This document shows positions 6,726 through 58,218 of a DNA stretch of 64,000 nt, one piece after another. Each line of letters opens with the position of its first letter. Positions within the stretch are counted from its first letter, which is position 1. The notes beneath the pieces were generated by a model. That model saw nothing but the letters and a program-made list of their open reading frames with translations. It did no database searches and was not told the DNA's origin. Source of the DNA: an uncultured Eubacteriales bacterium (GTDB lineage Bacteria > Bacillota > Clostridia > Oscillospirales > Oscillospiraceae); NCBI GenBank assembly GCA_949283375.1, contig CASDSM010000036.1, positions 1 to 64,000 of the forward strand, read 5' to 3'. The position numbers and the translations under genes are program-made.

Positions 6726-6777
6726 GTATGCGATAACTTTAAAACACATTTGTAATTGCTTGTCAGGAAATGAAAGA

Positions 6778-6854: not shown

Positions 6855-6867
6855 AGGAGGTATTTTT

Positions 6868-7086
6868 ATGAGCTACCATTCCGACCCCACCGCCAACGCC
6901 GCCATCGGCGCAGTTGACCGCGAGATTGAACGGATGATCCGGCGCGCAGAGCGGATCAAGCGCCGCCGCCAGAACGGCAAGCTGACGCCGGAGGAGCTGG
7001 CCGCAGCCCGCAGGCAGTTCACCGGCATCTACAGCCGCCTTCTCCGGGCTGCCCTGACGGACAGCCCCGATCCTCCGAAACGCTGA
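6868..7086 (+). CDS. Small basic protein of unknown function
   Basis: 72 residues, start ATG 6868 with AGGAGG at 6855-6860 (7-nt spacing). It is soluble, strongly basic in the middle (RRAERIKRRRQNGK, residues about 25-38) and mostly helical, with no membrane segment, Cys or recognised domain. It has its own promoter, a structured leader and a downstream terminator, so it is a genuine single-gene unit between two sugar-regulation genes. A nucleic-acid-binding or modulatory role is possible from the charge, but I do not recognise the family. Confidence 0.75.
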   Translation: MSYHSDPTANAAIGAVDREIERMIRRAERIKRRRQNGKLTPEELAAARRQFTGIYSRLLRAALTDSPDPPKR

Positions 7087-7092
7087 CAGCCA

Positions 7093-7118
7093 GAGGCGGC
7101 CGCAAATGCGGCCGCCTC
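7093..7118. terminator. Bidirectional terminator between convergent genes
   Basis: A 12-bp perfect stem, GAGGCGGCCGCA (7093-7104) with TGCGGCCGCCTC (7107-7118) and a 2-nt centre, between the plus-strand small gene and the minus-strand binding lipoprotein. The U-tracts are weak. Confidence 0.7.
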
Positions 7119-7136
7119 AAATGCTTTTGGGGAAGG

Positions 7137-8126: not shown

Positions 8127-9583
8127 GATACCACCTCCTGCTGTTCCAGCGGGTCGGAGACCGTCTCGCTCTGGGGGATGCGCACCGTCACCGTAGTCCC
8201 CTCCGCCCCGCTCTCGACGGACAGGCCGTAGCCCCTGCCAAAGAGCAATCCGATCCGCTCATGGACAGTGGCGAGGCCAAAGCCGGTCCGGTCGGTGCCT
8301 TCGAGGGAGGCGCGCACCTGGCGCAGCTTCTCCGGCGTCATGCCCACACCGTTGTCCGCGACGGTGAGCACGATGTCCTCCCCCTCCGCGCGGCCGGTCA
8401 CGCGGATACAGCCCTGGCCGCGCTTGAGCTTGATGCCGTGGTAGAGGGAGTTCTCCACCAGCGGCTGGAGCGTGAGCTTGGGGATGCGGCAGCGGGAGAG
8501 CGCGCTGTCGATCTGGATGGAATAGGTCAGAATGTCGCGGTAGCGCGTCTGCTGGATCTCCATATAGCTGCGCACATGCTTCTCCTCCTCCGCGAGGGTG
8601 ATGATGTCCCGCCCGCTGCTCAGCGAGGTGCGGAAGAAGGCGGAGAGGCTGGTCACCATCTGCTCGGCCTCGCCGGTCTGCCCCATCTCGATGAGCCAGA
8701 TGATGGTGTCGAGCGTGTTATAGAGAAAATGCGGGTTGATCTGCGCCTGCAGCAGGGCGAGTTCCGCCTTGCGCAGGCTGACCTGCTCGAGCTGATTCTG
8801 CCGGATGAGGGCGTTGAGCTGTGAGACCATCTGCTCCACGCCGCCGTTGAGGGCCTGGATCTCGCTCACCTCGCTGGAGACCGGCTGTCCGGGCGTCAGG
8901 TCGCCCATCCCGATGGCCTCCACGCGGCGGCAGAGGGTGTCCATCCGCGCAGAGAGCTGGCTGGTCATCCGGCGGGCGTGGTGGAGCAGGAGGGCGAGCA
9001 GCGCGGCGGCGGCGAGGCCCAGAAAGAGGAGCTGGCTGCGGATCTGCACCAGCAGGTCGTTTTGCAGGGCGTTGAGATGGCTCGCCTCGTAGTACAGATA
9101 GGTGTACATGTACTCCTGGATCAGATCGGTGAGGATATAGATGTTGTACTCGAGCTGATTCTGCCGCTCGTCATAGCTCTCCGTCTCGGCGATGAGGTAG
9201 ATCTTCTCCTCCAGGTTCTCGCTCAGATTGAGCACGCTCTCGATGGCCTGGAGGGAATTCTCGTCCGTGGTGGTCGCGATCAGCTCGGCGGCGATCTGCT
9301 GGGCCTGCTGGACCTACTCCACCGGCAGGCCGGTGGAGTACTGGCTTCCCACCACATAGTAGTACATCACCAGATCGATGTTGGCCTTGAAGCTCTGGTT
9401 GAACTCGGAGGCCACCGTGACGTTGTGCGTCAGGGCGCGGTAGCTCTGTGTGTAGTGCAGCAGCTCGCCGAGCAGGATGGCGGCGATGAGCAGCATGGGA
9501 ACGATGCAGGCGTAGACCAGGCGGCTGAGCCACCGCTGCAGGGTGATCTGCCGGGGACGGCGCTGCCGCCACGGCGCGCTCAC
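8123..9583 (-). pseudogene. LytS/YesM-type sensor histidine kinase (AraS-like), interrupted by an in-frame amber codon
   Basis: The 487-codon frame has one TAG at 9314-9316 (codon 90); the frame is open on both sides and unshifted. Before it are a membrane anchor (residues about 20-42) and the start of the extracellular sensor. After it come the rest of the sensor, the second membrane helix (LLFLGLAAAALLALLL), HAMP, His-kinase box INPHFLYNTLD, and ATPase motifs (ENSLYHGIK, DNGVGM, GFGLATVHERI). One base change would restore it (TAG from GAG or CAG). GTG 9235 could restart translation but would lose the first anchor and half the sensor. It may be a true nonsense mutation or a sequence error. 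Confidence 0.75.
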
Positions 9584-45217: not shown

Positions 45218-45305
45218 TGGCGCAGCGGGTGGGATTCGAACCCACGGTACCAGAGGTACACCTGATTTCGAGTCAGGCTCGTTATGACCACTTCGATACC
45301 GCTGC
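45218..45305 (-). tRNA. tRNA-Ser(CGA)
   Basis: Long variable arm class II tRNA. Acceptor GCAGCGG (5' end at 45305) pairs with CCGCTGC, then discriminator G and an encoded CCA (45218-45220). Anticodon loop CTCGAAA gives anticodon CGA, reading UCG. T-loop GGTTCGAATCC is intact. Transcribed on the minus strand. Confidence 0.96.
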
Positions 45306-45343
45306 GCATGCAGTTGGCCGGGCAGAGCGCCCGGAACGCCACT

Positions 45344-45372
45344 ATTATGCCACAGGCCGCGGAAAAAAGCAA
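45344..45372 (-). promoter_or_regulatory. Promoter of tRNA-Ser
   Basis: Minus-strand TTGCTT (complement of 45367-45372), 17 nt, CATAAT (complement of 45344-45349), about 38 nt upstream of the tRNA 5' end. Confidence 0.6.
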
Positions 45373-45438
45373 CACCCAATCTCGCCCGCGGCGCAGCTCA
45401 GGACAGAAAAAGACCTGTTCAGACGCAGACGGATGTGG

Positions 45439-45469
45439 TATACTGGCAGGGAGCCGGGGCTCCGGCTCC
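45439..45469 (+). promoter_or_regulatory. metY -10 box and 5' stem-loop
   Basis: TATACT at 45439-45444. The predicted message begins with a GC hairpin, GGAGCCGG (45450-45457) with CCGGCTCC (45462-45469), which may protect the 5' end. No S-box or T-box structure is seen. Confidence 0.5.
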
Positions 45470-45499
45470 TCGATCCGACTAGAGAAGGAGACCATCACC

Positions 45500-46789
45500 A
45501 TGAGCGATCAGAATTGGAACATTGAGACCAAGTGCATTCAGGCCGGCTATGCGCCGAAGAACGGCGAGCCGCGGATGATGCCCATCATCCAGAGCACCAC
45601 TTTCAAATATGACTCCTCTGAGGAGATGGGCAAGCTCTTTGACCTGGAGAAGAGCGGCTACTTCTACACCCGCCTGCAAAATCCCACCAACGACTATGTC
45701 GCGGCCAAGATCGCCGCGCTCGAGGGCGGCACCGCTGCGATGCTCACCTCCTCCGGCCAGGCGGCGAGCTTTTTCTCCATCTTCAACATCTGCACGGCGG
45801 GCGACCACGTCGTCTCCTCCGCCACCATCTACGGCGGCACCTTCAATCTCTTCCATGTGACGATGAAAAAGATGGGCATCGACTTCACCTTCGTCGACCC
45901 CGGCTGCTCGGATGAGGAGCTGGAGGCGGCCTTCCGCCCGAACACGAAGGCGGTCTTCGGCGAGACCATCGCCAATCCCGCCCTCGTCGTGCTCGACATC
46001 GAGCGCTTTGCCAGGGCGGCCCACGCGCACGGCGTGCCCCTCATCATCGACAACACCTTTGCCACCCCCATCAACTGCCGCCCCTTCGAGTGGGGCGCAG
46101 ACATCGTCATCCACTCCACCACCAAGTACATGGACGGCCACGACTGCGGTGTGGGCGGCTGCATCGTGGACTCCGGCCGGTTTGACTGGATGGCCCACGC
46201 GGACAAGTTCCCCGGCCTCTGCACCCCGGACGAGAGCTATCACGGCATCACCTACGCCGAGCGCTTCGGCAAGGAGGGGGCCTATATCACCAAGGCGACC
46301 GCCCAGCTCATGCGCGACCTCGGCTCCATCCCCGCGCCGATGAACGCCTTCCTGCTCAACCTCGGTCTGGAGAGCCTGCATGTGCGCATGCCGCGCCATT
46401 GCGAGAACGCGATGAAGGTCGCCCGCTTCCTGCAGGGACATGAGAAGGTCGCCTGGATCAACTACCCCGGCCTGGAGAACAGCCCCTACCACGCCCTGGC
46501 ACAGAAGTATATGCCGAACGGCACCTGCGGTGTCATCGCCTTCGGCGTCAAGGGAGGCCGCGCCGCAGCGGAGACCTTCATGAGCCACCTGAAGCTGGCC
46601 ATGATCGCCACCCATGTGGCAGACGCGCACACCTGTGTGCTCCATCCTGCCTCCTCCACTCACCGTCAGCTCACCGACGAGGAGCTGGTCGCCGCCGGCG
46701 TCAGCCCCGACCTCATCCGCCTGTCCGTCGGCATCGAGAACGGCGACGACATCGTCGCCGATGTCGCCCAGGCCCTCGCGGCGATCTGA
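45500..46789 (+). CDS. metY: O-acetylhomoserine sulfhydrylase (PLP-dependent Cys/Met metabolism enzyme)
   Basis: 429 residues, MetY length; cystathionine gamma-synthase relatives are about 380. The PLP lysine is in HSTTKYMDGH (near residue 210), with YTRLQNPT and a D-N-T-F-A-T motif. It makes homocysteine from O-acetylhomoserine and sulfide. ATG 45500 has AAGGAG 9 nt upstream. A methionine gamma-lyase function is less likely given length and sequence. Confidence 0.88.
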   Translation: MSDQNWNIETKCIQAGYAPKNGEPRMMPIIQSTTFKYDSSEEMGKLFDLEKSGYFYTRLQNPTNDYVAAKIAALEGGTAAMLTSSGQAASFFSIFNICTAGDHVVSSATIYGGTFNLFHVTMKKMGIDFTFVDPGCSDEELEAAFRPNTKAVFGETIANPALVVLDIERFARAAHAHGVPLIIDNTFATPINCRPFEWGADIVIHSTTKYMDGHDCGVGGCIVDSGRFDWMAHADKFPGLCTPDESYHGITYAERFGKEGAYITKATAQLMRDLGSIPAPMNAFLLNLGLESLHVRMPRHCENAMKVARFLQGHEKVAWINYPGLENSPYHALAQKYMPNGTCGVIAFGVKGGRAAAETFMSHLKLAMIATHVADAHTCVLHPASSTHRQLTDEELVAAGVSPDLIRLSVGIENGDDIVADVAQALAAI

Positions 46790-46812
46790 GCATAAGCCGC
46801 CTCTCCATCGGA

Positions 46813-46847
46813 AAAGGGCGTGCTGCCATTTTCGCAGCACGCCCTTT
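46813..46847. terminator. Terminator after metY
   Basis: A 14-bp stem AAAGGGCGTGCTGC (46813-46826) with GCAGCACGCCCTTT (46834-46847), 7-nt loop. A and T runs on either side serve metY and the convergent RiPP operon. Confidence 0.9.
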
Positions 46848-46905
46848 GTTGTGTCTGAAGGCTGGTACACTGAGCCGCCACCCGCTCCGGAATGGCGGCT
46901 TTTTC

Positions 46906-47172
46906 TTACGGCTCGAGGATGTGATGATGCTCGAGGCGGCGGACGAACTCCTCTGTGTCGGCGCGGGCAGTGGCTTCGTCCACCTCAAACTCCCCCACCA
47001 CCGCCTCCACCAGCTCATCCAGGGTCTTGGGGGTGCGCAGCTGCTCCCAGATGAAGTAGCCCACCTCGTTCGTGGAGACCAGACTGCCAAAGTCCAGCGC
47101 CGCCATGCCGGTCGGGACCAGCACATACTCCCCCGCGATCTCGCGGAGCATGAAGTCACTCTTGATGACCAT
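46906..47172 (-). CDS. PqqD-family RiPP recognition protein
   Basis: 88 residues, winged-helix PqqD/RRE fold: 'LREIAGEYVLVPTG' and 'LVSTNEVGYFIWEQLRTPKTLDELVEAVVGEFEVDEATARADTEEFVRRLEHHHIL'. Such proteins bind the leader of the precursor peptide and deliver it to the radical SAM enzyme. It is last in the operon, 12 nt after the membrane-anchored protein. Confidence 0.9.
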   Translation of the reverse strand: MVIKSDFMLREIAGEYVLVPTGMAALDFGSLVSTNEVGYFIWEQLRTPKTLDELVEAVVGEFEVDEATARADTEEFVRRLEHHHILEP

Positions 47173-47184
47173 CGCGTCCTCCCC

Positions 47185-47787
47185 TCAGTGCTCGTAGACC
47201 ATGACGCGGGTGGACTGGGTGATCAGCTCGTTGATCTCCGCGATCTCCACCGCGGAGAACTCCGCCGGGATCTCCGCCGGGTCCACCTCCTCAAAGGTGG
47301 CAAAGCCGATCACCTCGGAGTAGACGTCCTTCGTCCCGGCGTCGCCGCGCTCGCCCTCCAGCGGCGCGGCGTGGATGCACATCTCCTCCCCCTCCAGCGT
47401 GAAGGTGAGGTAGACGCCCGCGCTGTCCATCGCGTCCTCCAGGGCGGTCTCCCCCGCCGTGTAGAACGCGCCCGGCTCAAAGGCGGGGTACTGGATCGAG
47501 ATGCCGGTCAGCACCGCCGCCGAGAGCCAGTGCTCATAGGGGGCCTCCATCCGGTCCTCCAGCTCCAGGTCCGCCGGGGGAAGTGTCTCCTCCTGTCCGT
47601 CCGTCTGTTCCGTCTGGCCGTCCGAGACGCTCTCTCCGTCCTGCGGGCCGCTCTCCGCGCCGCCCAGGCGGGACCAGAGCGCCGCCGCGAGCAGGGCCAG
47701 CACGACCACCACCGCCGCGATGCCGATCAGCAGGTACGGCTTGCGCCCCGCTTTTTGCCGTATACGGCTGCCACTTCTCTTACTCAT
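47185..47787 (-). CDS. Membrane-anchored protein of unknown function in RiPP locus
   Basis: 200 residues: a basic cytoplasmic start (SKRSGSRIRQKAGRK), one helix (residues about 19-43), an acidic Gln/Glu/Asp-rich linker, then an extracytoplasmic domain of about 130 residues with no known motif. ATG 47787 overlaps the radical SAM gene by 8 nt, so it belongs to the pathway. It might be a protease, immunity or export helper, but nothing in it shows which. Confidence 0.8.
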   Translation of the reverse strand: MSKRSGSRIRQKAGRKPYLLIGIAAVVVVLALLAAALWSRLGGAESGPQDGESVSDGQTEQTDGQEETLPPADLELEDRMEAPYEHWLSAAVLTGISIQYPAFEPGAFYTAGETALEDAMDSAGVYLTFTLEGEEMCIHAAPLEGERGDAGTKDVYSEVIGFATFEEVDPAEIPAEFSAVEIAEINELITQSTRVMVYEH

Positions 47788-48910
47788 CGTCCGTTTCCTC
47801 CATTGATGCAAGCTGTCTGCGCCACTCCTGCTCGGAGACCTCCGTCATCCGGCAGAGATAGGGCGCCTTTTCGTTCACCGAGCCGGTCTCCGCCAGCAGG
47901 ATGGCCGCGCAGGGGTGACAGATCTCCTTCTTCGTGCAGCCCGCGCAGCCGCGCAGGACCTGCTGCCGCCGGACCTCCGTCGTGATGCGCTCCCAGCAGG
48001 GGGCGAAGCCCTCCCGGAAGGGCTCGGTCACCACCGGGAACTCCATCATCCCGCAGGCGGTCATCTTGCCCTCCCAGTTGATCCAGACGCTGCTGCGGCC
48101 CGCGCGGCACTGCATCTCGCCGCTGCCGTCCGAGCCCCAGGTCTCGTCCTCCGCCTGCTGCTCCGCCGCCTCGATCTTGTCGAGCATCCAGCGCGCCGCC
48201 TCGCGGAAGCGCTCCTCGCCCAGCCGGTAGCGCTGCTTGAGCACGTTCAGCCGCCCGGACTCCTCCGCCGTCAGCCGGGAGTCGGTCGCCTCCCGCGTCC
48301 GGCGGACCGGCGGGAACATATAAGTCGCAATGTTCGCCTGGCAGCCGTGGCCGTGGGCAAAGGCGATGATCTCGCGCAGGTCGTCCTGATTCTCCGGGAT
48401 GATGCTGCCGTTGACCACCACATGGATGCCCGCCTCACGCAGCAGGGCGATCCCCCGCTCCGCCCGCTCAAAGCCGTCCGGATTCTGACAGAGCCGCCCG
48501 TAGGTCTCCCGGCTCGCCCCGTAGAGGGTGATGTTGATCCGGGTGGGGGCCCGCTGCTTGAGCCATTCCACCGTCTCCCGGTCGATCAGCGTCCCGTTGG
48601 AGTTGATGACCAGCAGAAAGCCCATGTCGTGCAGCGTCTCGTAGAGCCGCCGGAACTCGGGATAGAGGAACGGCTCCCCGCCGGTGAGCAGGAGATAGAG
48701 CATCCCCGCCTCCCGGCACTCCTTCGCCAGCGCGATCCACTCGTCCGCCGTGATCTCCCGCTTGCCCAGGCGCGCCAGCTCCGCCTTCGTCTTGCGGACA
48801 TAGCACATCCGGCAGGCAAAGTTGCACACCGGCGAGAGCTCAAACGTCCCGCCCAGCGGGATGCGCAGCCGCGCCGCCTTGCTGTAGAGATAGTCCTTAT
48901 ACGTCCTCAT
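47780..48910 (-). CDS. Radical SAM/SPASM peptide-modifying enzyme
   Basis: 376 residues. Radical SAM motif CNFACRMC (near residue 29) and TGGEPFLYPEF. The C-terminal SPASM region has Cys residues for extra [4Fe-4S] clusters (MQCRAG, MTACGMM, CAGCTKKEICHPC). Such enzymes make thioether, C-C or epimerised residues in RiPPs. It starts by overlapping the HprK-like gene by 14 nt. The modification is not predictable from sequence. Confidence 0.9.
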   Translation of the reverse strand: MRTYKDYLYSKAARLRIPLGGTFELSPVCNFACRMCYVRKTKAELARLGKREITADEWIALAKECREAGMLYLLLTGGEPFLYPEFRRLYETLHDMGFLLVINSNGTLIDRETVEWLKQRAPTRINITLYGASRETYGRLCQNPDGFERAERGIALLREAGIHVVVNGSIIPENQDDLREIIAFAHGHGCQANIATYMFPPVRRTREATDSRLTAEESGRLNVLKQRYRLGEERFREAARWMLDKIEAAEQQAEDETWGSDGSGEMQCRAGRSSVWINWEGKMTACGMMEFPVVTEPFREGFAPCWERITTEVRRQQVLRGCAGCTKKEICHPCAAILLAETGSVNEKAPYLCRMTEVSEQEWRRQLASMEETDDE

Positions 48911-49760
48911 GCAAACCTCCCATTGCCCGCTCCAGCGCCTCCACAGCGCCCAGGTCCGCCCGGTTGCGCAGGCGGAGCACCGGTACCGCCCCGATGAGGT
49001 CCATCGCGAGATGGCCCGCCAGCGCCGTCTCCGCCTTGCTCCAGCGGTGAAACGCCAGCCCGGCCAGCACCGCCCGGTAGCGCGCCGCCGCCGTCATGGG
49101 CAAGATCACATTCTCCGGCCCCTGCTCGAGCAGGACGATGGCCGCCAGCGGCGCCGTCTCGTTGCGGCAGATCTTGGACGAGCCGCAGACGGACACCCCG
49201 CCGGCACACCACCCCGCCGCGCGGGGGAAGACCAGCGCCCGGTCGCCGTTGATCACCTCCGCGCCCCGCTCCCGCCGCCACAGCTCCGCCTGGGTGGACT
49301 TGCCCGCCCCGCTGAACCCGGCAAAGAGGATCGCCCGGCCCCGGTGGCGGATGTAGGAGCAGTGCAGGGTCCCGCAGCGGCGGTGCAGCAGGCCGCTGTG
49401 AAAGCCGGAGAGGGAGAGGAGCCAGTTGACTGAAAAAACCGGGTCCTCATACAGCTCCGGATGGACCGTGGCCGTGATTTCCGCCCCGCTCCAGTCCTCC
49501 GGCGCAATGCGAATGGCGGGGTCTGGCGTTCGGAACCAGTTGTAGAGATAACATCTCCCCCCGCGCTCCTCATAGCGCATGAGGCCGGAGCGCCGGGCGT
49601 CCTCCGGCAGTATGATGGTCTCCGTTCTTGCGTACAGGGTCACGTCCGGCACAGCCTCGCCCGTCCGGAATGGCTCCAGATACGGGCCGTCCGGCAGGTG
49701 CGCAGGGCAGCCCTTCACCGCGAGGGAGATATCCGCAAATTGATAGTATCTTGTGTTCAT
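48897..49760 (-). CDS. HPr kinase-like protein in RiPP locus
   Basis: 287 residues. P-loop GFSGAGKST (near residue 148) in a HprK-type C-terminal fold, and 'HCSYIRHRGRAILFAG' before it. Similar short HprK-like kinases occur in RiPP clusters (for example lasso-peptide and PqqD-linked loci) and may phosphorylate or otherwise handle the peptide. It is not a canonical HprK, because the N-terminal domain differs. It follows the precursor gene after a strong hairpin. Confidence 0.8.
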   Translation of the reverse strand: MNTRYYQFADISLAVKGCPAHLPDGPYLEPFRTGEAVPDVTLYARTETIILPEDARRSGLMRYEERGGRCYLYNWFRTPDPAIRIAPEDWSGAEITATVHPELYEDPVFSVNWLLSLSGFHSGLLHRRCGTLHCSYIRHRGRAILFAGFSGAGKSTQAELWRRERGAEVINGDRALVFPRAAGWCAGGVSVCGSSKICRNETAPLAAIVLLEQGPENVILPMTAAARYRAVLAGLAFHRWSKAETALAGHLAMDLIGAVPVLRLRNRADLGAVEALERAMGGLHEDV

Positions 49761-49779
49761 CGTACCACATCATAGAAGA

Positions 49780-49809
49780 GGGGGCATACCTCGCATGAGG
49801 TATGCCCCC
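49780..49809 (-). terminator. Attenuator hairpin between precursor and modification genes
   Basis: A 13-bp perfect stem, GGGGGCATACCTC (49780-49792) with GAGGTATGCCCCC (49797-49809), 4-nt loop, followed on the minus strand by a short pyrimidine run. It would give more precursor message than enzyme message. Confidence 0.75.
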
Positions 49810-49820
49810 AAGAGGACGGG

Positions 49821-50075
49821 TCAGGAATTCATAAAGGTGGTGGTGCCCAGCGGTCCGTTATAGCAGACCTTGGTGCCGGGTTCGACCTCTACGGATGAAA
49901 GACAAGCTAGTCCGAAATACTGCGGATGCGCATTCGGCCCCTTATCGTCACACAGCGTGCAGGTCTCATAGCTGTATCCCAGCGCGATCCCATTTTCGCC
50001 GGAGCAGCTCGCCACGGCGGTGTCCAGCTGGAAGGGCTCCACGATCAGGTAGGGCTTGGCATAGGTTCTCTTCAT
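49821..50075 (-). CDS. Candidate Cys-rich RiPP precursor peptide
   Basis: 84 residues from ATG 50075 (AAGGAGGG 7 nt upstream). The N-terminal MKRTYAKPYLIVEPFQLD is like leaders of many clostridial peptides (Y-x-KP-x4-E). Cysteines are at 24, 39, 42, 58 and 71, with Gly, Ser and Asn-rich segments between. It is followed by kinase-like, radical SAM and PqqD genes, which is why I read it as the substrate. It starts 19 nt after the stop of the giant GH20-like gene. Confidence 0.75.
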   Translation of the reverse strand: MKRTYAKPYLIVEPFQLDTAVASCSGENGIALGYSYETCTLCDDKGPNAHPQYFGLACLSSVEVEPGTKVCYNGPLGTTTFMNS

Positions 50076-50094
50076 GCGCAATTCCCTCCTTCCT

Positions 50095-53000
50095 TTAGAG
50101 CAGGGTGACCCGGACGGCAACCGTCTGGGTGCTGACGACGGTTCCACCATCGGCCCCCGTCAGGGAGACCACGAAATTGGTGTTGCCGATCAGCCTGTAG
50201 GTGTACGGCTTGAGCTGGAGGGTGTAGGTGAACGTGCCATCACTGTTCGCCTTGCCCTCGCTGACGGTCAGCGCGTTGAGGGCGCCGCCGCCCACCGTGT
50301 AGGTACGGCTGCCCGCCTTGACGGTGAAGGTCTGGCCAGTGGCAAGCTGCTTACTGGTGGTGACCTCCATGGTCATGGTCCGGCCATAGCGGACGCGGTT
50401 GGTGGTCACGGTCACGCCGTTCTCCTGAATGGTGGCCTCAGTCGTTGCCGGCTCAGACGGAGTAGCTCCCTCGGCGACCGCCTTGGTGTACTTAAACTCG
50501 GCGGTGGAGGGGGTGGCGAAGGTGGCCTTCACGTCGGTGATGGAGAGGATGCCGTCGCCGCTGGCCTTGGAGATGTAGACGGTGTACTGATACCTGCCGC
50601 CATCATTCCCCGCCACACCGAGGTTCTCCAGCTTGTAGTTCATGGCGGTGGCGGTGGCGATGCTGGCCGTATTCGATTCTCCGTTCACGCTGACGCTCAT
50701 GGTGACAGACTTGCCGTCCGCGCTCTTGGCGCCGATCTGGAGCGTGGCAACCTTAGAGCTGGTTTCCAGAATGAAGCCGATCACGGAGCCCGTGCTGTTC
50801 AGATAGGCCTCGTTGTTGGGGCCGACCAGGGTGTAGTCGATGACGCCGCCATTGTCCTCCACGGAGCCCGCATTGATGTAGAGGACGCCGTTGCCGCTAT
50901 CGCTTACGCTGTTGTAGGTCTCAGCGTCAATGATGGCGTTGCGGAGCTTCAGGCGAACCGCGTTGGCCTCGTTGTCCGTCTGGTACTGGGTGCCCTCGGC
51001 GGTCAGCGGGTTGTAAATCTGCACCGCATCAATGACGTGGTAGCCGCCCTGGCTCAGAGCCGGATAAGCCGTATTCGTATACTCCGCAAAGGCGGTGACT
51101 GTGACCGTATAGGTGTCATAGGCCAGGTCCTTCACGGTGTAGACCGGAATCTGATACAGCGTCTCATTGCCCGTGTTCAGGACGGAGGTGTTCTTCACCA
51201 TCGTGCCGGAATCGTTCACGACCTTGATGGACAGCAGGCCATTGGTCTTACCCGTCTGGCTGTAGAGGTCAAAGCCGGTGCCGGTGAAGGTGAAGGTGGC
51301 CGTCTGGCTGTCCCCCTTCTCAGCAATGTTGACCGTATGCGCCGAGCCGTTGGAGTAGTTGCTAAAGCTTGAGTAAGCGCTGTCGTAGCCGTACGGCGTG
51401 GTGTTGTAGGTCTGGGTGCTGTCGGCAGTGTTGCCCGTGGTAGTCCAGCCGTCAGAGTAGGTAATCAGGCCGCAGTCGTCCTCGTAGTAGACGGTGGTGG
51501 CGGGGATTACACGGAGATATGTCGTGGTGGTTGACCCCGCATCGGTGTCACTGAATGTTGCGGTCAGCTCCACGTCATCCATTCTGGGGCTCATGGTGTT
51601 GGGCGTGTAGGTGACCGATTTATCAGCGTTGACCGTCACCGTGCCGTAGCGAGCCGTGCCAGCGGTAACTGTGGTGGCATTTTGCAGGGCAAGCTCACTA
51701 GCCGGTACCGTGATGGGCAGGCCATAGTCATAGACCACCGTATGAGTGTCCTCAAACTCATAGTACAGATAGACATCCTTGCCGTCTTCACTACGCGTCA
51801 CCCCTACGCAGGTATAGTCACGGTCGGCATAGGCGTAGGAGAGCTCGGTCAAGGTCGAAAGGTCAGAGGAGACGGTCTGCTCACGGTTATTGCTGTTGAT
51901 CACAGTGCCGTTGAGCAGATCGCCCTTCCAGGGGTCAGACAGAGCGATATTCTCATTAAAGACTGTGCCGGAATTTACAGCAATGTTGTAATTATAGAAC
52001 TCATAGTTCTCAGTTCTGTCAATATAGTGGACCGTCAGAGAGTCCTCCGTGACCTTGGCCCGGAGATAATAGGTGACGCGCATGCCCTGAAGATTGTAGA
52101 TCTCAATGGCCTGAAGATCCGGGCTCCCGCCAATGACGCAGGAATAAGTGCCGGAAATACTGGTCCATGCCTCCATGCCGCTGTTGTCCAGGTCCTCCTG
52201 CGTGGCCGCCCAGGCGACTGTCTCCGTGCCGTCGTAGCTATAGCGCTGAGTGCTCGCGGTATCACTTCCAAAGTCGGCCCTGTCATCGTCGCTGGTGGGC
52301 GTCAGCGTGATGAGGTAAATCTCATACTCCGCCGTCTCCAGAGCACGAATCGGCTTGAGGGTACGGTATGGTCCCACACCGTCGCAGTGATAGAGCAGTG
52401 TCTTTTCCGTGCTAAAGCTATCGGGCACGCGCTCGCCGCTGGGATAACGCACCGCGAAGTCAAGACGGACGTACTTGCCATCCAGCCAAGAGGCGCCGCT
52501 CCACTCATCTCGCTCTACGCCGTAGTCCACGAAGACGGTGGTCACCTCATCGGTAACTTCAGACACCTGCATGTAGTAGGCCACAATCTGATCGTCGCTT
52601 CGCACTCGCGTCCATTCTTCGCCATCCGCAGAGTACCACCAGGCTCCCTGCCAATAACGGATATGGGTGATATCGGTGCCGTGCTCGTCGGTGCACATAT
52701 CGACACCATCATCGCCCGCAGTGTACTGGTGGTATCCATCTGGAAGTCTTCTGGCCTTCCAGTAGACCGTCTCATAGCCATCGCCAGCCTTAACGGCATC
52801 CTCCGGAACCAACGCGCTGATGACGACGCCGTCCTCACCATACGCTGTCTGAGCGCTAATCGCAGTGCGCTGGTTGCCATTGGCATCATTGACATGAGCG
52901 TTGGTAATCCAATACTCAATGGTCAGCGGATCAACCTGGCTCAGGTCCTCTGCCACCACATTGACCGTAAACACCTGATCGCCCAGGGTGACGGTGGTAA

Positions 53001-55314
53001 TCTTGCCGGCGGCATCCGCGGCCGCGGTGAAGGTCACCGTGGTGGAGGCGGGGACAGGTTCGGTAGTGCCGGAAATCTGATAAACATCAATGCTGGGGGA
53101 GCGCCAATCCGGCCAGCTGGTTTCATCAGAGCCGCATTCCACCACATTAGTGATAGAATCAGTCGTAGAATAACCCCAGCTATAGTAGTATGTTCTCCAT
53201 GAACGGCTTCTCTGCGCATAGAGCGGATAATAGTTGCCGTCACTTGTCCGGTAATAATAGCCAGTCGCTCGCCAGCTACCGTTGCTATCGCTGCGAATTA
53301 GATCATCGTAGGAGACATCGACCTCTGCATAGGTCGTGCCGCCCTCCACCGCGTCGTTGCCGGTCACCGTGACGTTAGTGACAATGCTCGTGTCCTCAAT
53401 CACGGCGGTTTCGCCGCTGTAATTCACGTTCTCGATGGTCTCAGTGGCCGTGCCGCCCGCGGTAACCGTAATGGTGATGGGGTCGCTCAGCAGCACAATG
53501 CCGGCCTCGGAGAAGTGCGGGCAGGTAAAGGTGAAGGTGCTGTTGTCCTCACTCAGCGTGCCGTTGATCAGCGTATAGGTGCCGTCTTCTTCCTGCACAA
53601 ATCCCTTAACCGTCTTGTCCGTCAAATCCCACTCCTCAGGGACAGGGATGGCGACGGTGGCAGAGCCGGTGTAGCTGCCATCGGCAGTGGTGGGAGTGAT
53701 GCTGTAGGCGACAACCTCAGCCGCGCCCGCGATCGTGGGAACATTCTCCGTAATCTGAACAGCCGTCACGCCAGTCAGGCCGGGGGCGGTCACGCGGACG
53801 TTGGTAGTCGTATCCGTCACGGTGGCCGGTTCCGTCTCGGTCTCGCCGCCGCCGGTGGTGCCAGCGATGGCCTTGCCAAAGGCGGTGATGGTGGCGGCGG
53901 TGTCGGCTACCACACTGTCAGCGGTGTCAGCGCCGGGCACGTCGCACCAGATGCAGAACATCGCGCCGGCGGGGTTGGAGATGGTGTCGCCCATGAAGGC
54001 AGTGGCCTTAAAGCCGGAGGCCTTCTCGGCCGAGCACTGGGCGTCAGTCTTCCCCAGCACCCAATAGTAGTCGCCATGGGTGTTGATCATCTGGAAGCCC
54101 TGCTCTGCCAGGAAGGAGGCGGAGGCCACCTCGTAGCCGATCCAGCCGGAGGACCAGTAGGCGATCAGGATATCCTTGCCGATGGGGTAGGTGGTATCAC
54201 TATTATAGTAGATACCGTCGTTGAAAGCCATGGGGGTCATCCCAGCGTCCTTCACCATCGCGGCCAGCTCGTTGACATAGGTTACAAATGCGCCATATTC
54301 ACCATCCTGTTGCAGCTGGCCAAAGCCCATGCCGCCGTGCGAGTACGACAGATCGTTGGCGTACTCGTCCGCGCCGATGTTGAAGATGGTGCAGCCTTTC
54401 TCGGCAAAGTAATCGATGTACTTCTTCACCAGCGCCTGGGTGAAGGCCACAGCCGTCTCGTTGGTGACGTCAATCGTTCTATCCGAATAGTCGCCCGCAT
54501 ACTGGTAAGCGAGATTTTCCCCAGTGAGCGCTTCCGCAGCGTCGAGGATCGCGTCCATATGGCCCGGGGTGTTGAGCAGCGGGATAATCTCCATGTCGTT
54601 TTCCTTGGCATAGGCGATGATCTCGTCCATCTCGTCCTGGGTCAGCTCGTTCTTGTCACCGGCGTCATAATAAGCCTCGTTGGCAGCCTGGATGGCGGCG
54701 GTCACCTTTTCACTAGTGTAGGTGACCGACTGAGTGGTGGTAACAGGCTCAGCGGCCGGGGTGCTTCTGCTGGAAGCGGTGGGCACGGCAGAGGTCTCCT
54801 CCGCGGGCTCCTCTTCCGCGGGAATCTCCTCTTCGGCAGGCTCCCCGGCGGGCGTCTCCTCCTCAGAGGGTTCTTCCTCGGCAGGCTCCTCAGCGGCGGT
54901 CTCCTCCTCAGAGGGCTCCTCAGCCGGGACCTCCGCCTCGGGCTCTTCCACGGGTGTCTCCTCCGCGGGCTCCTCGCTCTCGGTCACGGGCTCGTCAGCG
55001 GCCTGCTCATCGACGTCATAGGTGGTGACCGTCTGCTCCACCTCAATGGACATGTCGTTGAGCAGGAAACGCAGGCCGTCGTTGCCGAACGCCAGCTCCA
55101 GATAGTTAAAGCCGGCATCCGAGGCGGTGTCAATGATGCTCTTGATGTTGTCCACGCTGAAGTACTTGCGGCCGCTGTCCAGGTGGACGATGCGGTAGTC
55201 AAGCTCAGACGAGGTGCTGTTCCCCGTGGCCATGGCGGACATGGGCAGGAGGGTCAGCGTCATCACCAGTGCGAGCACGAGTGACAGCAGTCTGTGTTTG
55301 AATCTCCTCTCCAT
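50095..55314 (-). CDS. Large secreted protein with GH20-like glycosidase domain
   Basis: 1,739 residues. Signal peptide to about residue 30 (ALVMTLTLLPMSAMA). A GH20 beta-N-acetylhexosaminidase/lacto-N-biosidase-like domain starts at residue 39 (YRIVHLDSGRKYFS), is broken by an acidic Pro/Glu/Ala insert (about 95-195), and continues to about 470. The catalytic Asp-Glu pair is D316-E317 in FNIGADEY, with GHMD at 251-254. The remaining 1,250 residues are beta-rich, Thr/Ser/Tyr-rich modules resembling Ig-like or carbohydrate-binding repeats. No LPXTG or S-layer anchor is seen. The role inferred is host or dietary glycan cleavage at the cell surface. Confidence 0.85.
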   Translation of the reverse strand: MERRFKHRLLSLVLALVMTLTLLPMSAMATGNSTSSELDYRIVHLDSGRKYFSVDNIKSIIDTASDAGFNYLELAFGNDGLRFLLNDMSIEVEQTVTTYDVDEQAADEPVTESEEPAEETPVEEPEAEVPAEEPSEEETAAEEPAEEEPSEEETPAGEPAEEEIPAEEEPAEETSAVPTASSRSTPAAEPVTTTQSVTYTSEKVTAAIQAANEAYYDAGDKNELTQDEMDEIIAYAKENDMEIIPLLNTPGHMDAILDAAEALTGENLAYQYAGDYSDRTIDVTNETAVAFTQALVKKYIDYFAEKGCTIFNIGADEYANDLSYSHGGMGFGQLQQDGEYGAFVTYVNELAAMVKDAGMTPMAFNDGIYYNSDTTYPIGKDILIAYWSSGWIGYEVASASFLAEQGFQMINTHGDYYWVLGKTDAQCSAEKASGFKATAFMGDTISNPAGAMFCIWCDVPGADTADSVVADTAATITAFGKAIAGTTGGGETETEPATVTDTTTNVRVTAPGLTGVTAVQITENVPTIAGAAEVVAYSITPTTADGSYTGSATVAIPVPEEWDLTDKTVKGFVQEEDGTYTLINGTLSEDNSTFTFTCPHFSEAGIVLLSDPITITVTAGGTATETIENVNYSGETAVIEDTSIVTNVTVTGNDAVEGGTTYAEVDVSYDDLIRSDSNGSWRATGYYYRTSDGNYYPLYAQRSRSWRTYYYSWGYSTTDSITNVVECGSDETSWPDWRSPSIDVYQISGTTEPVPASTTVTFTAAADAAGKITTVTLGDQVFTVNVVAEDLSQVDPLTIEYWITNAHVNDANGNQRTAISAQTAYGEDGVVISALVPEDAVKAGDGYETVYWKARRLPDGYHQYTAGDDGVDMCTDEHGTDITHIRYWQGAWWYSADGEEWTRVRSDDQIVAYYMQVSEVTDEVTTVFVDYGVERDEWSGASWLDGKYVRLDFAVRYPSGERVPDSFSTEKTLLYHCDGVGPYRTLKPIRALETAEYEIYLITLTPTSDDDRADFGSDTASTQRYSYDGTETVAWAATQEDLDNSGMEAWTSISGTYSCVIGGSPDLQAIEIYNLQGMRVTYYLRAKVTEDSLTVHYIDRTENYEFYNYNIAVNSGTVFNENIALSDPWKGDLLNGTVINSNNREQTVSSDLSTLTELSYAYADRDYTCVGVTRSEDGKDVYLYYEFEDTHTVVYDYGLPITVPASELALQNATTVTAGTARYGTVTVNADKSVTYTPNTMSPRMDDVELTATFSDTDAGSTTTTYLRVIPATTVYYEDDCGLITYSDGWTTTGNTADSTQTYNTTPYGYDSAYSSFSNYSNGSAHTVNIAEKGDSQTATFTFTGTGFDLYSQTGKTNGLLSIKVVNDSGTMVKNTSVLNTGNETLYQIPVYTVKDLAYDTYTVTVTAFAEYTNTAYPALSQGGYHVIDAVQIYNPLTAEGTQYQTDNEANAVRLKLRNAIIDAETYNSVSDSGNGVLYINAGSVEDNGGVIDYTLVGPNNEAYLNSTGSVIGFILETSSKVATLQIGAKSADGKSVTMSVSVNGESNTASIATATAMNYKLENLGVAGNDGGRYQYTVYISKASGDGILSITDVKATFATPSTAEFKYTKAVAEGATPSEPATTEATIQENGVTVTTNRVRYGRTMTMEVTTSKQLATGQTFTVKAGSRTYTVGGGALNALTVSEGKANSDGTFTYTLQLKPYTYRLIGNTNFVVSLTGADGGTVVSTQTVAVRVTLL
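54790..54996 (-). repeat. Low-complexity acidic repeat within the GH20 domain
   Basis: Encodes residues about 107-175, built from imperfect EEPAEE / EEETPA units (Glu, Pro, Ala). It sits between the first and second parts of the GH20 barrel, where family members normally have a short loop. Confidence 0.85.
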
Positions 55315-55396
55315 ACACTTCTACTCCTCTCAGGAAAGAATGGATTTATAAGTAACAGACTGTAACGGCCTGCTTACCTATCGTGGTCAGGGTTAT

Positions 55397-55447
55397 TTTC
55401 CTGTCAAAGGTACTTTGACAGGAAAGCGCAAATGTGCACATTTGCGC
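55397..55447 (-). promoter_or_regulatory. Two adjacent perfect palindromes in the leader of the giant gene
   Basis: TTTCCTGTCAAAG-GTA-CTTTGACAGGAAA (55397-55425) is directly followed by the 22-bp palindrome GCGCAAATGTG/CACATTTGCGC (55426-55447). Both lie in the predicted 177-nt leader downstream of the promoter. They can form two back-to-back stems, or could be operator sites. No U-tract follows, so they are not ordinary terminators. Confidence 0.7.
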
Positions 55448-55497
55448 GGCGCCGGGGGTGGCGCAATTTTGCCCATACTCTGCCCCAAGTTAGGCTT

Positions 55498-55526
55498 ATT
55501 ATAGCCCCCGGAATTTGTGATGTCAA
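55498..55526 (-). promoter_or_regulatory. Consensus sigma-A promoter of the giant GH20-like gene
   Basis: Minus-strand TTGACA (complement of 55521-55526), 17 nt, TATAAT (complement of 55498-55503): a perfect consensus, like the hydrogenase promoter. It may also drive the downstream RiPP genes. Confidence 0.85.
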
Positions 55527-56139
55527 GAATTTCCAGAGATTATCTCCCGATTTTCTCGCCGTCCGGCGGGGCGGTCCGGGCGGGCGGGCTGCCGCCAAAC
55601 CGCCCTCAAAACAAACGATCGTCCGGTTTCGGGCGGCAATTCTGCGGCAAGGGAAGGAAATCAGGCGGCAAATCGCATGAAAAAGCCTGTGAATCGCCGT
55701 TTTTGGCGATGGAATGGCCCGGTTTCCGGCGCCCGTGCTTCGCAGTGCTTTCCGGAGCCGCTTTCTATGGACCATGTCAGGCGTTTCTGTCGTAATATGG
55801 AATAAAGCAATACTTTATGTAGACTTATGTGTTCCGGATTTATGCCGGACTGCCGCACCACCGGATGAGGGTGGCATATCTATCGCCTTTTCGCCGTTCC
55901 GGGAGAAATGCGCGCAGACCGCCAACGGCGCTTCCGCTCCGTTTTCATACAGAACGCAACGAGAAGGCTCCGAACAACGCCAGACGGCCCCGGCAGGAAT
56001 CACCCGCCGGGGCCGTCTGGTTGAGAGAGAAAAGAGAGAAGAGAGAGAATGTCAATGCTTGCTGTCCCTGACAGTGAGCAGTATAGCACAGTCTCTCTCC
56101 GAATGCGTGACCATTCTGCGTCCATTTCGCAAACAAAGT
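55527..56139. other. Intergenic region without a supportable gene
   Basis: About 610 bp. It holds a 15-bp GC-rich hairpin (CCAGACGGCCCCGGC at 55981-55995 with its complement around 56007-56021), a purine tract (about 56023-56049), and a minus-strand TATACT near 56083. These could delimit a small RNA, but there is no evidence beyond the hairpin. No ORF here has a ribosome site and a plausible protein. Confidence 0.5.
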
Positions 56140-56152
56140 GTGAACAAACACA

Positions 56153-56181
56153 AAGCCGCAGACTGCGTCAGTCTGCGGCTT
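56153..56181 (-). terminator. Terminator of tRNA-Ala
   Basis: A 13-bp stem (56153-56165 with 56169-56181) with a 3-nt loop, then a T-rich stretch (TGTGTTTGTTC) on the minus strand. Confidence 0.88.
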
Positions 56182-56189
56182 CTGCCAGA

Positions 56190-56263
56190 TGGACCCGAAG
56201 GGGATCGAACCCTCGAACCTCACGGATGCGAACCGTGCGCTCTCCCAGCTGAGCTACGGGCCC
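56190..56263 (-). tRNA. tRNA-Ala(CGC)
   Basis: Acceptor GGGCCCG (5' end 56263) pairs with CGGGTCC with one G-U; discriminator A. Anticodon stem CACGG/CCGTG around loop TTCGCAT gives anticodon CGC, reading GCG. D arm AGCTCAGCTGGGAGAGC and T loop GGTTCGATCC are intact. CCA is not encoded. Confidence 0.96.
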
Positions 56264-56294
56264 GTATACGCTGCCGGAAATCGGCAACGGTATT

Positions 56295-56322
56295 ATTATA
56301 GCAGACTTTCGGGGAATGTAAA
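56295..56322 (-). promoter_or_regulatory. Promoter of tRNA-Ala
   Basis: Minus-strand TTTACA (complement of 56317-56322), 16 nt, TATAAT (complement of 56295-56300), about 32 nt before the tRNA 5' end. Confidence 0.7.
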
Positions 56323-56385
56323 GAGTTTTTTTGAGAAAATTTCTGTCCGGGCCAGGAGACCGGCCCGGACAGGGGGGATCGCCCG

Positions 56386-58218
56386 TCACTCCACGGTGAC
56401 GCTCTTGGCGAGGTTGCGCGGCTTGTCGATGTCGCAGCCGCGCATCAGCGCGACATAGTAGGCAAAGAGCTGCAGCGGCACGATGGCCAGCGAGGGGAGA
56501 AACATGAGGTCGGTGTCCGGGATGACGATGAGGGAGTCGGCGTGCTTTGCCATCTCCTCCGCTCTGGAGCGGGTGGTGAGGCCGAGCACCCGCGCGCCGC
56601 GGGACTTGACCTCGACGACGTTGCTCACGTCCTTGTCAAAGAGCGGCGCGTAGCTCGCCAGGGCGACCACCAGCGTCCCATCCTCGATCAGGGAGATGGT
56701 GCCGTGCTTGAGCTCGCCGGCGGCGTAGGCCTCGGAGTGGATGTAGGAGATCTCCTTGAGCTTGAGCGAGCCCTCCAGCCCCATCGCATAGTCCAGATTG
56801 CGGCCCATGAAGAAGATGGACTCGTGGTTGAAATAGAGGGAGGCGTAGTACTGGATCTCCTCCGTATGGCGCAGGATCTCGGCGATTTTGTCCGGGATGC
56901 GCAGCATCTCGCCGAGCAGCTCCGCCTCCCGCTCCGGCGTGAGGCGGCCGAGCAGGCGGGCCGTCCAGATGCCGAAGAGCATCAGCACCGCCAGCTGGGT
57001 GGAGTAGGCCTTGGTAGTCGCCACGGCGATCTCCGGCCCCGCCCAGGTATAGAGGACGTAGTCCGCCTCCTTGGCGATCGAGCTGCCCACCACGTTCACG
57101 ATGGCGAGCGTCTTCGCCCCCAGCCGCCTGGCCTCGCGGAGGGCGGCCATCGTGTCCAGCGTCTCGCCGGACTGGCTGATGACGATGACCAGGGAGTTCT
57201 CGTCCACCAGGGGGTTGGAGTAGCGGAACTCAGAGGCGAGGACCACCTCCACCGGCTTGCGCAGCAGCTGCTCGAGCTGGTACTTGCCCACCACACCGAC
57301 ATGGTAGGACGAGCCGCAGGCGACGATGTAGAGCCGGGAGAGGCTCTGCAGGAAGTCCGCATCCAGGCCGAGGCCGTCGAGCACCACCTGTCCGTTCTGG
57401 ATATGGGGGGCGATCGCCTTGCGCACCGCCTCCGGCTGCTCCATGATCTCCTTGAACATGAAGTGCTCATAGCCGCCCTTCTCCGCGTCCGCGATATCCC
57501 AGTCCACCGTGCTGCGCTCCTTCTCCACCGGCTGGAGGAGGGCGTCATAGACCTGGATGCCGTCGCGGGTGAGGATGGCGAGTTCACCGTCCTCCATATA
57601 GCTCACCGTCTTGGTGTACTTGATGAGGGCGGTCACGTCGCTGGCGAGGAAGTTGCAGCCCTCGCCGTAGCCGAGGACGAGGGGGCTGTCCTTGCGCGCG
57701 GCGATAAGCTGGCCGGGATGGTCCGAGCAGAGGATACCGAGGGCATAGGAGCCCTCGATCCGGTGCAGGACCTTGAAGGTGGCCTCCACCAGGTCGCCCT
57801 GGTAGTAGTAGTCCAGCAGCTGGGCGACCACCTCGGTGTCCGTGTCCGAGTGGAAGACCACGCCCTGACTTTGCAGGTACTCCTTGATCTCCATATAGTT
57901 CTCAATGATGCCGTTGTGCACCACCGCGATGCGGCCGGAATTGCTCAGATGGGGGTGAGAGTTGGCATCCGAGGGTTCGCCGTGCGTCGCCCAGCGGGTG
58001 TGGCCGACGCCCACCGTCCCCTCCAGCTTCGCCCCGCCGTCCACCAGGTCGGAGAGCACGGCAAGGCGCCCCTTTGCCTTGACCAGCTGAAGGCCCTGCT
58101 GCTCCCCGAAGACCGCCAGACCGGCGGAGTCATAGCCGCGGTATTCCAGGCGGCGTAAGCCGTCGAGCAGGACGGGCGCGGCCTGCTCACCGCCGATAAA
58201 ACCGACAATTCCACACAT
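56386..58218 (-). CDS. glmS: Glutamine--fructose-6-phosphate aminotransferase (isomerizing)
   Basis: 610 residues. The N-terminal glutaminase domain starts MCGIVGFIGG with nucleophile Cys2. Two SIS isomerase domains follow (SQSGETLDT near residue 350; C-terminal AKSVTVE). It makes glucosamine-6-phosphate for cell-wall synthesis. Only 95 nt separate it from the upp stop, so there is no room for a glmS ribozyme upstream. Confidence 0.97.
   Translation of the reverse strand: MCGIVGFIGGEQAAPVLLDGLRRLEYRGYDSAGLAVFGEQQGLQLVKAKGRLAVLSDLVDGGAKLEGTVGVGHTRWATHGEPSDANSHPHLSNSGRIAVVHNGIIENYMEIKEYLQSQGVVFHSDTDTEVVAQLLDYYYQGDLVEATFKVLHRIEGSYALGILCSDHPGQLIAARKDSPLVLGYGEGCNFLASDVTALIKYTKTVSYMEDGELAILTRDGIQVYDALLQPVEKERSTVDWDIADAEKGGYEHFMFKEIMEQPEAVRKAIAPHIQNGQVVLDGLGLDADFLQSLSRLYIVACGSSYHVGVVGKYQLEQLLRKPVEVVLASEFRYSNPLVDENSLVIVISQSGETLDTMAALREARRLGAKTLAIVNVVGSSIAKEADYVLYTWAGPEIAVATTKAYSTQLAVLMLFGIWTARLLGRLTPEREAELLGEMLRIPDKIAEILRHTEEIQYYASLYFNHESIFFMGRNLDYAMGLEGSLKLKEISYIHSEAYAAGELKHGTISLIEDGTLVVALASYAPLFDKDVSNVVEVKSRGARVLGLTTRSRAEEMAKHADSLIVIPDTDLMFLPSLAIVPLQLFAYYVALMRGCDIDKPRNLAKSVTVE

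What the first reader, a model, noticed from the sequence alone, without database searches (positions are those of the whole stretch)
46906..50075. Candidate undescribed RiPP pathway: five-Cys precursor, HprK-like kinase, radical SAM/SPASM, PqqD
Seen: an 84-residue precursor with five Cys, a strong hairpin, and then four tightly linked genes including a leader-binding PqqD and a SPASM enzyme. An HprK-like protein is uncommon in radical-SAM peptide loci. A membrane-anchored protein is also present, but no ABC exporter or protease, so export and leader removal must come from elsewhere or differ from known pathways.
Basis: partly seen in the sequence, partly recalled or inferred. Interest (0 to 1): 0.8.

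Follow-up and report, generated by a model that had tools for sequence, protein, structure and literature searches.

The report
Modified peptide paired with giant secreted protein
A group of Clostridia carries a gene set that appears to modify a small cysteine-containing peptide, and that peptide is usually encoded beside a giant secreted protein, a pairing whose chemistry and purpose can now be tested.

Summary
In detail: an 84-residue precursor with five Cys, a 13-bp hairpin, then HprK-like, radical SAM/SPASM, membrane and PqqD/RRE genes. Related giants share a 420-residue module that reaches no Pfam cut-off. In apparently the same 400 family genomes the module occurs in 32, the precursor in 35, both in 31. 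Some genomes hold two or three giant-peptide pairs, with one kinase/radical-SAM locus elsewhere. The precursors have a YxxP RRE-binding motif, usually four Cys, and a C-terminal Ser in 58 of 62. This resembles phosphorylated lasso and LPP peptides, with a radical SAM enzyme in place of the lasso cyclase. Best reading: a new RiPP variant with RRE-guided radical-SAM modification, probable C-terminal Ser phosphorylation, and an extracellular product working with the giant. Against simple phosphorylation, one of two catalytic Asp of the kinase is replaced. Leader peptidase and exporter candidates lie on another contig of this genome.

The parts
55498..55526 (-). probable operon promoter, TTGACA-17-TATAAT
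   Evidence: 12 of 12 consensus match, about 185 nt upstream of the giant gene; the scan found 3 promoter-like sites against 2.3 expected, so only the perfect score makes it notable; no expression data
50095..55314 (-). giant secreted protein (1,739 aa): signal peptide, GH20 domain, shared module at aa 1190-1612
   Evidence: GH20 E 2e-21; module found in 55 long ORFs of 53 loci, this one included; signal peptide read by eye from the N-terminus
50479..51747 (-). shared module of the giant (aa 1190-1612), with GPNNEVYL-type motif; its first part weakly resembles Big_9, below cut-off
   Evidence: alignment A4; Big_9 18.3 bits against 23.6; co-occurs with the precursor in 31 genomes
49821..50075 (-). 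precursor peptide, 84 aa: YxxP leader motif, Cys 24/39/58/71 conserved, Cys 42 not, C-terminal Ser 84
49780..49809 (-). 13-bp hairpin, probable attenuator or partial terminator between precursor and enzyme genes
   Evidence: a stem of at least 10 bp lies within 80 nt after 37 of 62 precursors against 2.1% of 3,240 random stretches, which are mostly coding
48897..49760 (-). HprK-like kinase (287 aa)
   Evidence: His133, Lys154 and Asp173 invariant in 30 sequences; HPr kinase is the nearest solved family by profile
47780..48910 (-). radical SAM/SPASM enzyme (376 aa): CxxxCxxC plus seven SPASM Cys
47185..47787 (-). membrane-anchored protein with an outer domain (200 aa), accessory, role unknown
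   Evidence: its family occurs in 6 of 74 loci, and a second membrane-anchored family, alike only in the membrane segment, in 25
46906..47172 (-). PqqD-type RiPP recognition element (88 aa)
   Evidence: Pfam PqqD E 2e-17; nearest solved relatives are lasso TbiB1, PbaB1 and LppB

Best explanation
A RiPP operon built from the leader-recognition and kinase parts of phosphorylated lasso/LPP pathways, with a radical SAM/SPASM enzyme where the lasso cyclase would be, making a peptide partner for a giant secreted protein. Proposed steps: (1) one promoter drives giant and precursor, and the hairpin keeps the enzyme genes at a lower level [inferred]; (2) the PqqD protein binds the leader at YxxP and hands the peptide to the enzymes [inferred from homology]; (3) the radical SAM/SPASM enzyme cross-links the core, most likely at the four conserved Cys [inferred; bond type unknown]; (4) the HprK-like enzyme phosphorylates the C-terminal Ser [inferred, the least secure chemical step]; (5) a SpI-type peptidase removes the leader and an ABC exporter exports the product, both supplied from contig C31 in this genome [inferred]; (6) outside the cell the peptide works with the giant through the shared module, which gives one constant interface to different outer domains (GH20, VWA, ricin-B, PA14) [inferred]. 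Shown here: gene linkage, co-occurrence, sequence motifs, predicted hairpin.
For: Conserved gene set in differing order: giant-precursor-kinase-rSAM-RRE, RRE-giant-precursor-kinase-rSAM and RRE-precursor-kinase-rSAM-giant. Module in 32, precursor in 35 and both in 31 of 400 family genomes, Fisher p 1e-40, not corrected for relatedness; the one module-only genome has a divergent precursor with kinase and radical SAM genes. In five genomes of one genus the only radical SAM match at E 1e-50 lies in a kinase-rSAM-membrane protein locus without precursor or giant, while 3, 2, 2, 2 and 1 giant-precursor pairs lie on other contigs. C-terminal Ser in 58 of 62 precursors and in the last two residues in 62 of 62 (48 and 52 of 52 at 60% identity) against 9.7% of 3,437 other short ORFs; in 37 of 40 that were not in the search profile and in 13 of 14 of these whose match stopped short of the C-terminus. 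[YW]xxP in 61 of 62, the exception lacking its start. RRE closest to lasso/LPP RREs. Core distances follow the giant module (rho 0.51) more than kinase (0.34) or rSAM (0.39) in 33 loci. SpI and an exporter 72% identical to that of a relative in the same genome on C31.
Against: The Asp pair of known peptide kinases is not intact: of 53 radical-SAM-linked kinases 52 were scored, 45 with NG-Asp, 6 with N-Asp and one GA-Asp in place of Asp-Asp; both Asp matter in BsfK (PMC10368454, passages read). Three of 11 divergent precursor candidates outside the 62 end in Tyr, Ala or Thr. An RRE gene lies within 7 kb of only 34 of 62 precursors, and none was found in the five trans maturation loci fetched. 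No NTP transferase of the LPP kind in this genome. Not every precursor has a giant at hand: 51 of 62. Of 14 further module loci fetched, one has a whole adjacent precursor and two have fragments at contig ends; 11 show none, four of them with the giant ending within 300 bp of a contig end. The module follows the radical SAM protein too (rho 0.58), so shared descent of the locus may explain much of the correlation. C31 leaders are WxxP, so its peptidase may not serve the YxxP leader. No product, expression or binding data.
Confidence: 0.55

Rival explanations
1. The peptide is an ordinary secreted RiPP (antimicrobial or signal) and the giant is merely a neighbour in a surface or polysaccharide region.
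For: Paeninodin and LPP clusters often lie in polysaccharide loci (PMC13381572, section 12 read). Here a Wzz-type family occurs in 12 and a surface Ig-like family in 11 of 74 loci.
Against: Giant directly upstream within 250 bp in 43 of 62 loci, with the set kept through three gene orders; pairs persist without enzymes nearby; near-complete co-occurrence.
Confidence: 0.2
2. The HprK-like protein is no longer a kinase: it binds nucleotide and acts as adaptor or ATPase, and the C-terminal Ser serves another purpose, such as peptidase recognition or linkage to another molecule.
For: First Asp of the pair replaced in all 52 scored radical-SAM-linked members; 11 of 19 kinases not near a radical SAM gene lack the pair too.
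Against: His, Walker A Lys and the second Asp are invariant in 30 sequences; the C-terminal Ser matches the site used by paeninodin-type kinases (PMC9266682, passages read).
Confidence: 0.3
3. The small protein is a disulfide-bonded subunit of the giant, and the enzymes act on something else.
For: Usually four Cys and a core of about 60 residues, longer than many RiPP cores (the comparison is recalled).
Against: [YW]xxP near the start in 61 of 62, an RRE gene within 7 kb in 34 of 62, leader more conserved than core (mean commonest-residue frequency 0.58 against 0.29).
Confidence: 0.1
4. Peptide-derived redox cofactor of the PQQ or mycofactocin kind.
For: Radical SAM, PqqD and a small peptide together; the mycofactocin radical SAM model is a distant match, 73.5 bits against a cut-off of 265. 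A glyceraldehyde-3-phosphate dehydrogenase gene lies in 6 of 74 loci.
Against: Long, highly variable core; the constant partner is a secreted surface-type protein. Oxidoreductases were not searched for systematically.
Confidence: 0.03

Closest known systems
LPP, linear polyphosphorylated peptides (Popov et al. 2026, PMC13381572; abstract, passages and sections 6, 7, 12 read)
   Same: Discrete RRE, YxxP leader, HprK-like kinase; among 74 related loci SpI peptidase occurs in 12, an ABC family in 15 (loose cluster, at least one wrong) and an NTP transferase in 8
   Different: Radical SAM/SPASM enzyme and giant partner here; C-terminal Ser conserved, whereas LppA is phosphorylated at core residue 3; full LPP leader consensus not met; the word 'radical' does not occur in that paper's main text
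Paeninodin/pseudomycoidin-type phosphorylated lasso peptides (PMC9266682, passages read)
   Same: RRE, HprK-like kinase, conserved C-terminal Ser, there the phosphorylated residue
   Different: No B2-type peptidase family in this genome and no cyclase gene recognised in the locus; long Cys-containing core; altered Asp pair in the kinase
SynChlorMet (SCM) cassette, NCBIfam ScmC/D/E/F models
   Same: HprK-like, PqqD-like and radical SAM/SPASM proteins together (that ScmC is HprK-like is recalled; it shares the matched region)
   Different: All matches far below the family cut-offs
Sactipeptides and ranthipeptides
   Same: Radical SAM/SPASM maturase and Cys-containing core
   Different: Matches to their maturase models far below cut-off; separate lasso-type RRE and a kinase; bond type unknown

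Membership tests
LPP | discrete RRE of lasso/LPP kind | tested here: met
   nearest solved structures TbiB1, PbaB1, LppB; E 5.4e-6, 0.0033, 0.029; below the NCBIfam lasso RRE cut-offs
LPP | HprK-like kinase | tested here: inconclusive
   profile match to HPr kinase, first catalytic Asp replaced
LPP | SpI peptidase, NTP transferase and exporter in the cluster | tested here: not met
   none recognised in the locus; in the genome SpI and exporter on C31, no NTP transferase
LPP | leader consensus YxxPxVLxHQxIxFETxxS | tested here: not met
   only YxxP and a hydrophobic residue two after it shared; compared by eye
phosphorylated lasso peptide | B2 leader peptidase | tested here: not met
   no PF13471 match in this genome at E 0.001 (that B2 proteins belong to PF13471 is recalled)
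phosphorylated lasso peptide | macrolactam cyclase | not tested
   none recognised among the five genes of the locus; no profile search for it was made in the genome or the relatives
phosphorylated lasso peptide | C-terminal Ser in the precursor | tested here: met
   58 of 62, and in the last two residues in 62 of 62
SynChlorMet cassette | members reach ScmC, ScmD, ScmE or ScmF cut-offs | tested here: not met
   21 of 125, 20 of 100, 71 of 400 and 62.5 of 400 bits
radical SAM/SPASM enzyme | CxxxCxxC and seven-Cys SPASM domain | tested here: met
   all invariant in 25 sequences; spacing rule recalled
sactipeptide or ranthipeptide | thioether between Cys and a carbon of another residue | not testable with these tools
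   needs mass spectrometry
RiPP | leader removed and core modified | not testable with these tools
   inferred from leader motif, RRE and enzymes only

The most novel reading that the evidence does not exclude
A two-part surface system: a radical-SAM-crosslinked, C-terminally phosphorylated peptide is the dedicated partner of giant secreted proteins that share one peptide-linked module and swap outer domains, with one maturation locus able to serve several giant-peptide pairs in a cell. The RiPP would be a structural or arming component of an extracellular machine, not a free small molecule.
Probability: 0.35. Interest if true: 0.9.

Novelty: new variant of a known kind. Interest (0 to 1): 0.75.

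Why it matters
It would join two enzyme logics, lasso/LPP-type leader recognition with phosphorylation and radical SAM peptide chemistry, in one pathway. It would also give a RiPP a dedicated giant protein partner. [quoted passage not shown] here binding and deletion experiments with a named partner become possible. The leader and C-terminal signature, the giant module and the enzyme set are clear enough to search for in other genomes.

Tried and rejected
Cofactor and plain bacteriocin readings were considered and ranked low (see rivals). ABC genes near the third radical SAM locus (L120) were first labelled exporter by a loose homology cluster and rejected after reading the ORFs, which look like an uptake system (label recalled). 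A first script for kinase motifs used too narrow a pattern and left 47 of 72 kinases unscored; it was rewritten, and one kinase (L087) still fell outside the pattern, its sequence reading NGD. No Rfam regulator was found in 46400-56400 (a tRNA, and one snoRNA match below its gathering score). The promoter and terminator scans found no more sites in all than shuffled sequence. No solved structure was found for the giant module (best E 0.028). The distance correlations are not corrected for shared descent.

Rows dropped before counts: the 22 seeds of A1 were picked by eye from the listing, whose pattern is N-terminal but which shows whole peptides; six more divergent candidates of that listing (L043, L044, L052, L068, L070, L076) were left out of the seeds, L043 coming back later by profile. 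Short duplicate loci L010-L039, L080 and L081 were left out of the scripts. Of 65 profile matches two under 25 bits were dropped (L061 and L076, both ending in Ser), and one cut by a contig end (L108) was removed, leaving 62. One of the 62 (L001, first) lacks its start. Outside the 62 I saw 11 divergent candidates: L040, L061, L064, L070, L076, L120, L160 and L182 end in Ser; L044, L052 and L068 do not. Hits in G036 and G227 were not fetched.
Full report
What is there. On the minus strand an operon-like run starts with a perfect sigma-70 type promoter at 55526-55498 and a giant gene, 50095-55314, for a 1,739-residue protein with a signal peptide (read by eye) and a GH20 domain. Nineteen bases lie between its end and the start of the 84-residue precursor (50075-49821). 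A 13-bp hairpin follows (49809-49780; the 63-nt stretch folds at -33.8 kcal/mol, z -5.9, none of 200 shuffles as stable). Then come an HprK-like gene, a radical SAM/SPASM gene, a membrane-anchored protein and a PqqD-type RRE.

The precursor is a real family. Candidates were listed by an N-terminal pattern around kinase-bearing loci, and 22 alignable ones were picked by eye for A1, in which Tyr5, Pro8, Cys24, Cys39, Cys71 and Ser84 are invariant. Six more divergent candidates were left out. A search with A1 (E 0.01) found precursors in 35 of 400 genomes of the family and in 6 of 391 of the class; four of these six lie outside the window's family, and three of the four are marginal leader-only matches. 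From the fetched loci 62 complete precursors were collected: 58 end in Ser, the other four have Ser next to last; 61 of 62 have [YW]xxP near the start, the exception lacking its start; 44 have four Cys, 8 three, 6 five and 4 six. At 60% identity 48 of 52 end in Ser. Other short ORFs of the same loci, mostly not genes, end in Ser in 9.7% (n 3,437). Because the seeds were picked by eye and the profile covers the C-terminus, the check that matters is on sequences not in the profile: 37 of 40 end in Ser, and 13 of 14 of those whose match stops short of the C-terminus. Among 11 divergent candidates outside the 62, eight end in Ser and three do not. The leader is better conserved than the core (0.58 against 0.29).

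The enzymes. The radical SAM protein has the CxxxCxxC motif and seven SPASM Cys invariant in 25 sequences. It reaches no NCBIfam cut-off among the families shown, and its nearest solved relatives include SkfB and PqqE. The RRE is nearest to lasso RREs TbiB1 and PbaB1 and to LppB; YxxP is the motif which such RREs bind (PMC13381572, passages and sections 6, 7 and 12 read). The HprK-like profile aligns with HPr kinase over the His, Walker A Lys and Asp region. In paeninodin-type lasso peptides the C-terminal Ser is the phosphorylated residue (PMC9266682, passages read), which makes the conserved C-terminal Ser here the natural target. However, of the two adjacent Asp that matter in BsfK (PMC10368454, passages read), the first is replaced here: among 53 radical-SAM-linked kinases 52 could be scored, 45 with NG-Asp, 6 with N-Asp and one with GA-Asp; among 19 kinases not near a radical SAM gene 8 have the Asp pair and 11 do not. 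Kinase activity is therefore likely but not safe.

The giant partner. Of 62 precursors, 51 have a module-bearing giant on the same strand within 4 kb, 43 of them directly upstream within 250 bp. Nine giants were scanned with Pfam: four have GH20, three VWA (one of them under the cut-off), one ricin-B lectin, PA14 and SLH domains, one of the VWA giants also Big_3, and one none over a cut-off. Yet 55 long ORFs in 53 loci share a module of about 420 residues (E 4e-30 or better) with invariant residues in a GPNNEVYL-type motif (A4). Searches of 400 family genomes, apparently the same draw since the same handles return, gave the module in 32 and the precursor in 35, both in 31; Fisher p is 1e-40 without correction for descent. 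The module-only genome, G207, has a divergent precursor ending in Ser next to kinase, radical SAM and exporter-type genes (L182). Of the four precursor-only genomes three are marginal hits (E 2e-4 to 2e-3) and the fourth, G232, has its precursor on a 4.7-kb contig. Against a strict pairing, 14 further module loci were fetched: one had a whole adjacent precursor, two had fragments at contig ends, and 11 showed none, four of these with the giant ending within 300 bp of a contig end.

Maturation in trans. In five genomes of genus g79 (79-92% complete) the single radical SAM match at E 1e-50 lies in a kinase-rSAM-membrane protein locus in which no precursor, giant or RRE was found over the 13-16 kb fetched, while 3, 2, 2, 2 and 1 giant-precursor pairs lie on other contigs. 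A sixth genome of the genus, G314, has the whole set together (L089). The unit that multiplies there is giant plus peptide. Over 33 loci core distances follow the giant module (rho 0.51) more than the kinase (0.34) or the radical SAM protein (0.39), partial value given rSAM 0.38; module and rSAM follow each other too (0.58), so common descent weighs in. The hairpin is a shared feature: a stem of at least 10 bp lies within 80 nt after 37 of 62 precursors against 2.1% of 3,240 random stretches, which are mostly coding and thus a mild control. It also follows pairs that have no enzyme genes downstream. The simplest reading is that giant and peptide are made together and in excess of the enzymes.

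Export and leader removal. No such gene was recognised in the locus. Among 74 related loci a SpI-type peptidase family occurs in 12, an ABC family in 15 (loose cluster, at least one wrong) and an NTP transferase in 8, which is the LPP core set. This genome has one SpI-like gene, on contig C31 beside a second radical SAM/kinase/RRE locus, and on the same contig, about 13 kb away, an exporter 72% identical to that of a relative. It has no NTP transferase of that family and no PF13471 peptidase. The C31 and C29 precursors have WxxP leaders, and the window's has YxxP. In Bacilli this Tyr/Trp choice keeps paeninodin and LPP pathways apart (PMC13381572), so sharing of the C31 peptidase is possible but not shown.

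Verdict. A real and conserved RiPP variant with a new partner type, for which eight searches of an open-access library listed no prior description; subscription papers are mostly missing from it. Of the hits, four were read in passages or sections (PMC13381572, PMC9266682, PMC10368454, PMC4289311), the rest seen as listings. In the passages shown of PMC4289311 an HPr kinase is mentioned only in lasso clusters. Rough confidence by step: RRE-guided radical SAM RiPP 0.9; giant is a functional partner 0.8; C-terminal Ser phosphorylation 0.6; joint action outside the cell 0.55.

Noticed in passing
L040 (G000:C31): Second radical SAM/kinase/RRE locus of the same genome, WxxP leader, 133-residue precursor ending in Ser, SpI-like peptidase beside it; exporter about 13 kb away on the same contig.
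   Followed up: partly
L120 (G000:C29): Third radical SAM locus with two WxxP small ORFs, one of them ending in Ser, and no kinase found nearby.
   Followed up: partly
L169 (G000:C41), 3090-8211: Module-bearing giant followed by a membrane protein and an RRE-like N-terminus (33 bits) that runs into a LytTR domain: perhaps a decayed or rearranged relative of the system.
   Followed up: partly
L001: Two precursor-kinase-radical SAM sets in tandem; the first precursor is 81% identical to the window's over the part present, with the variable fifth Cys replaced.
   Followed up: partly
L041 6417-7298; L090 and L091: A kinase frame split by a TGA, and radical SAM frames of two genomes with an in-frame TAG near the end.
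   Followed up: no
L074, L077, L078, L079, L057, L059: HprK-like and PqqD genes close together without a radical SAM relative in the stretch: perhaps lasso or LPP type loci in the same bacterial group.
   Followed up: no
window 45284-46789 and 56190-56263: A plus-strand Cys/Met metabolism PLP enzyme gene (Pfam E 1.7e-124) converges on the operon's end, and a tRNA lies upstream of its promoter.
   Followed up: partly
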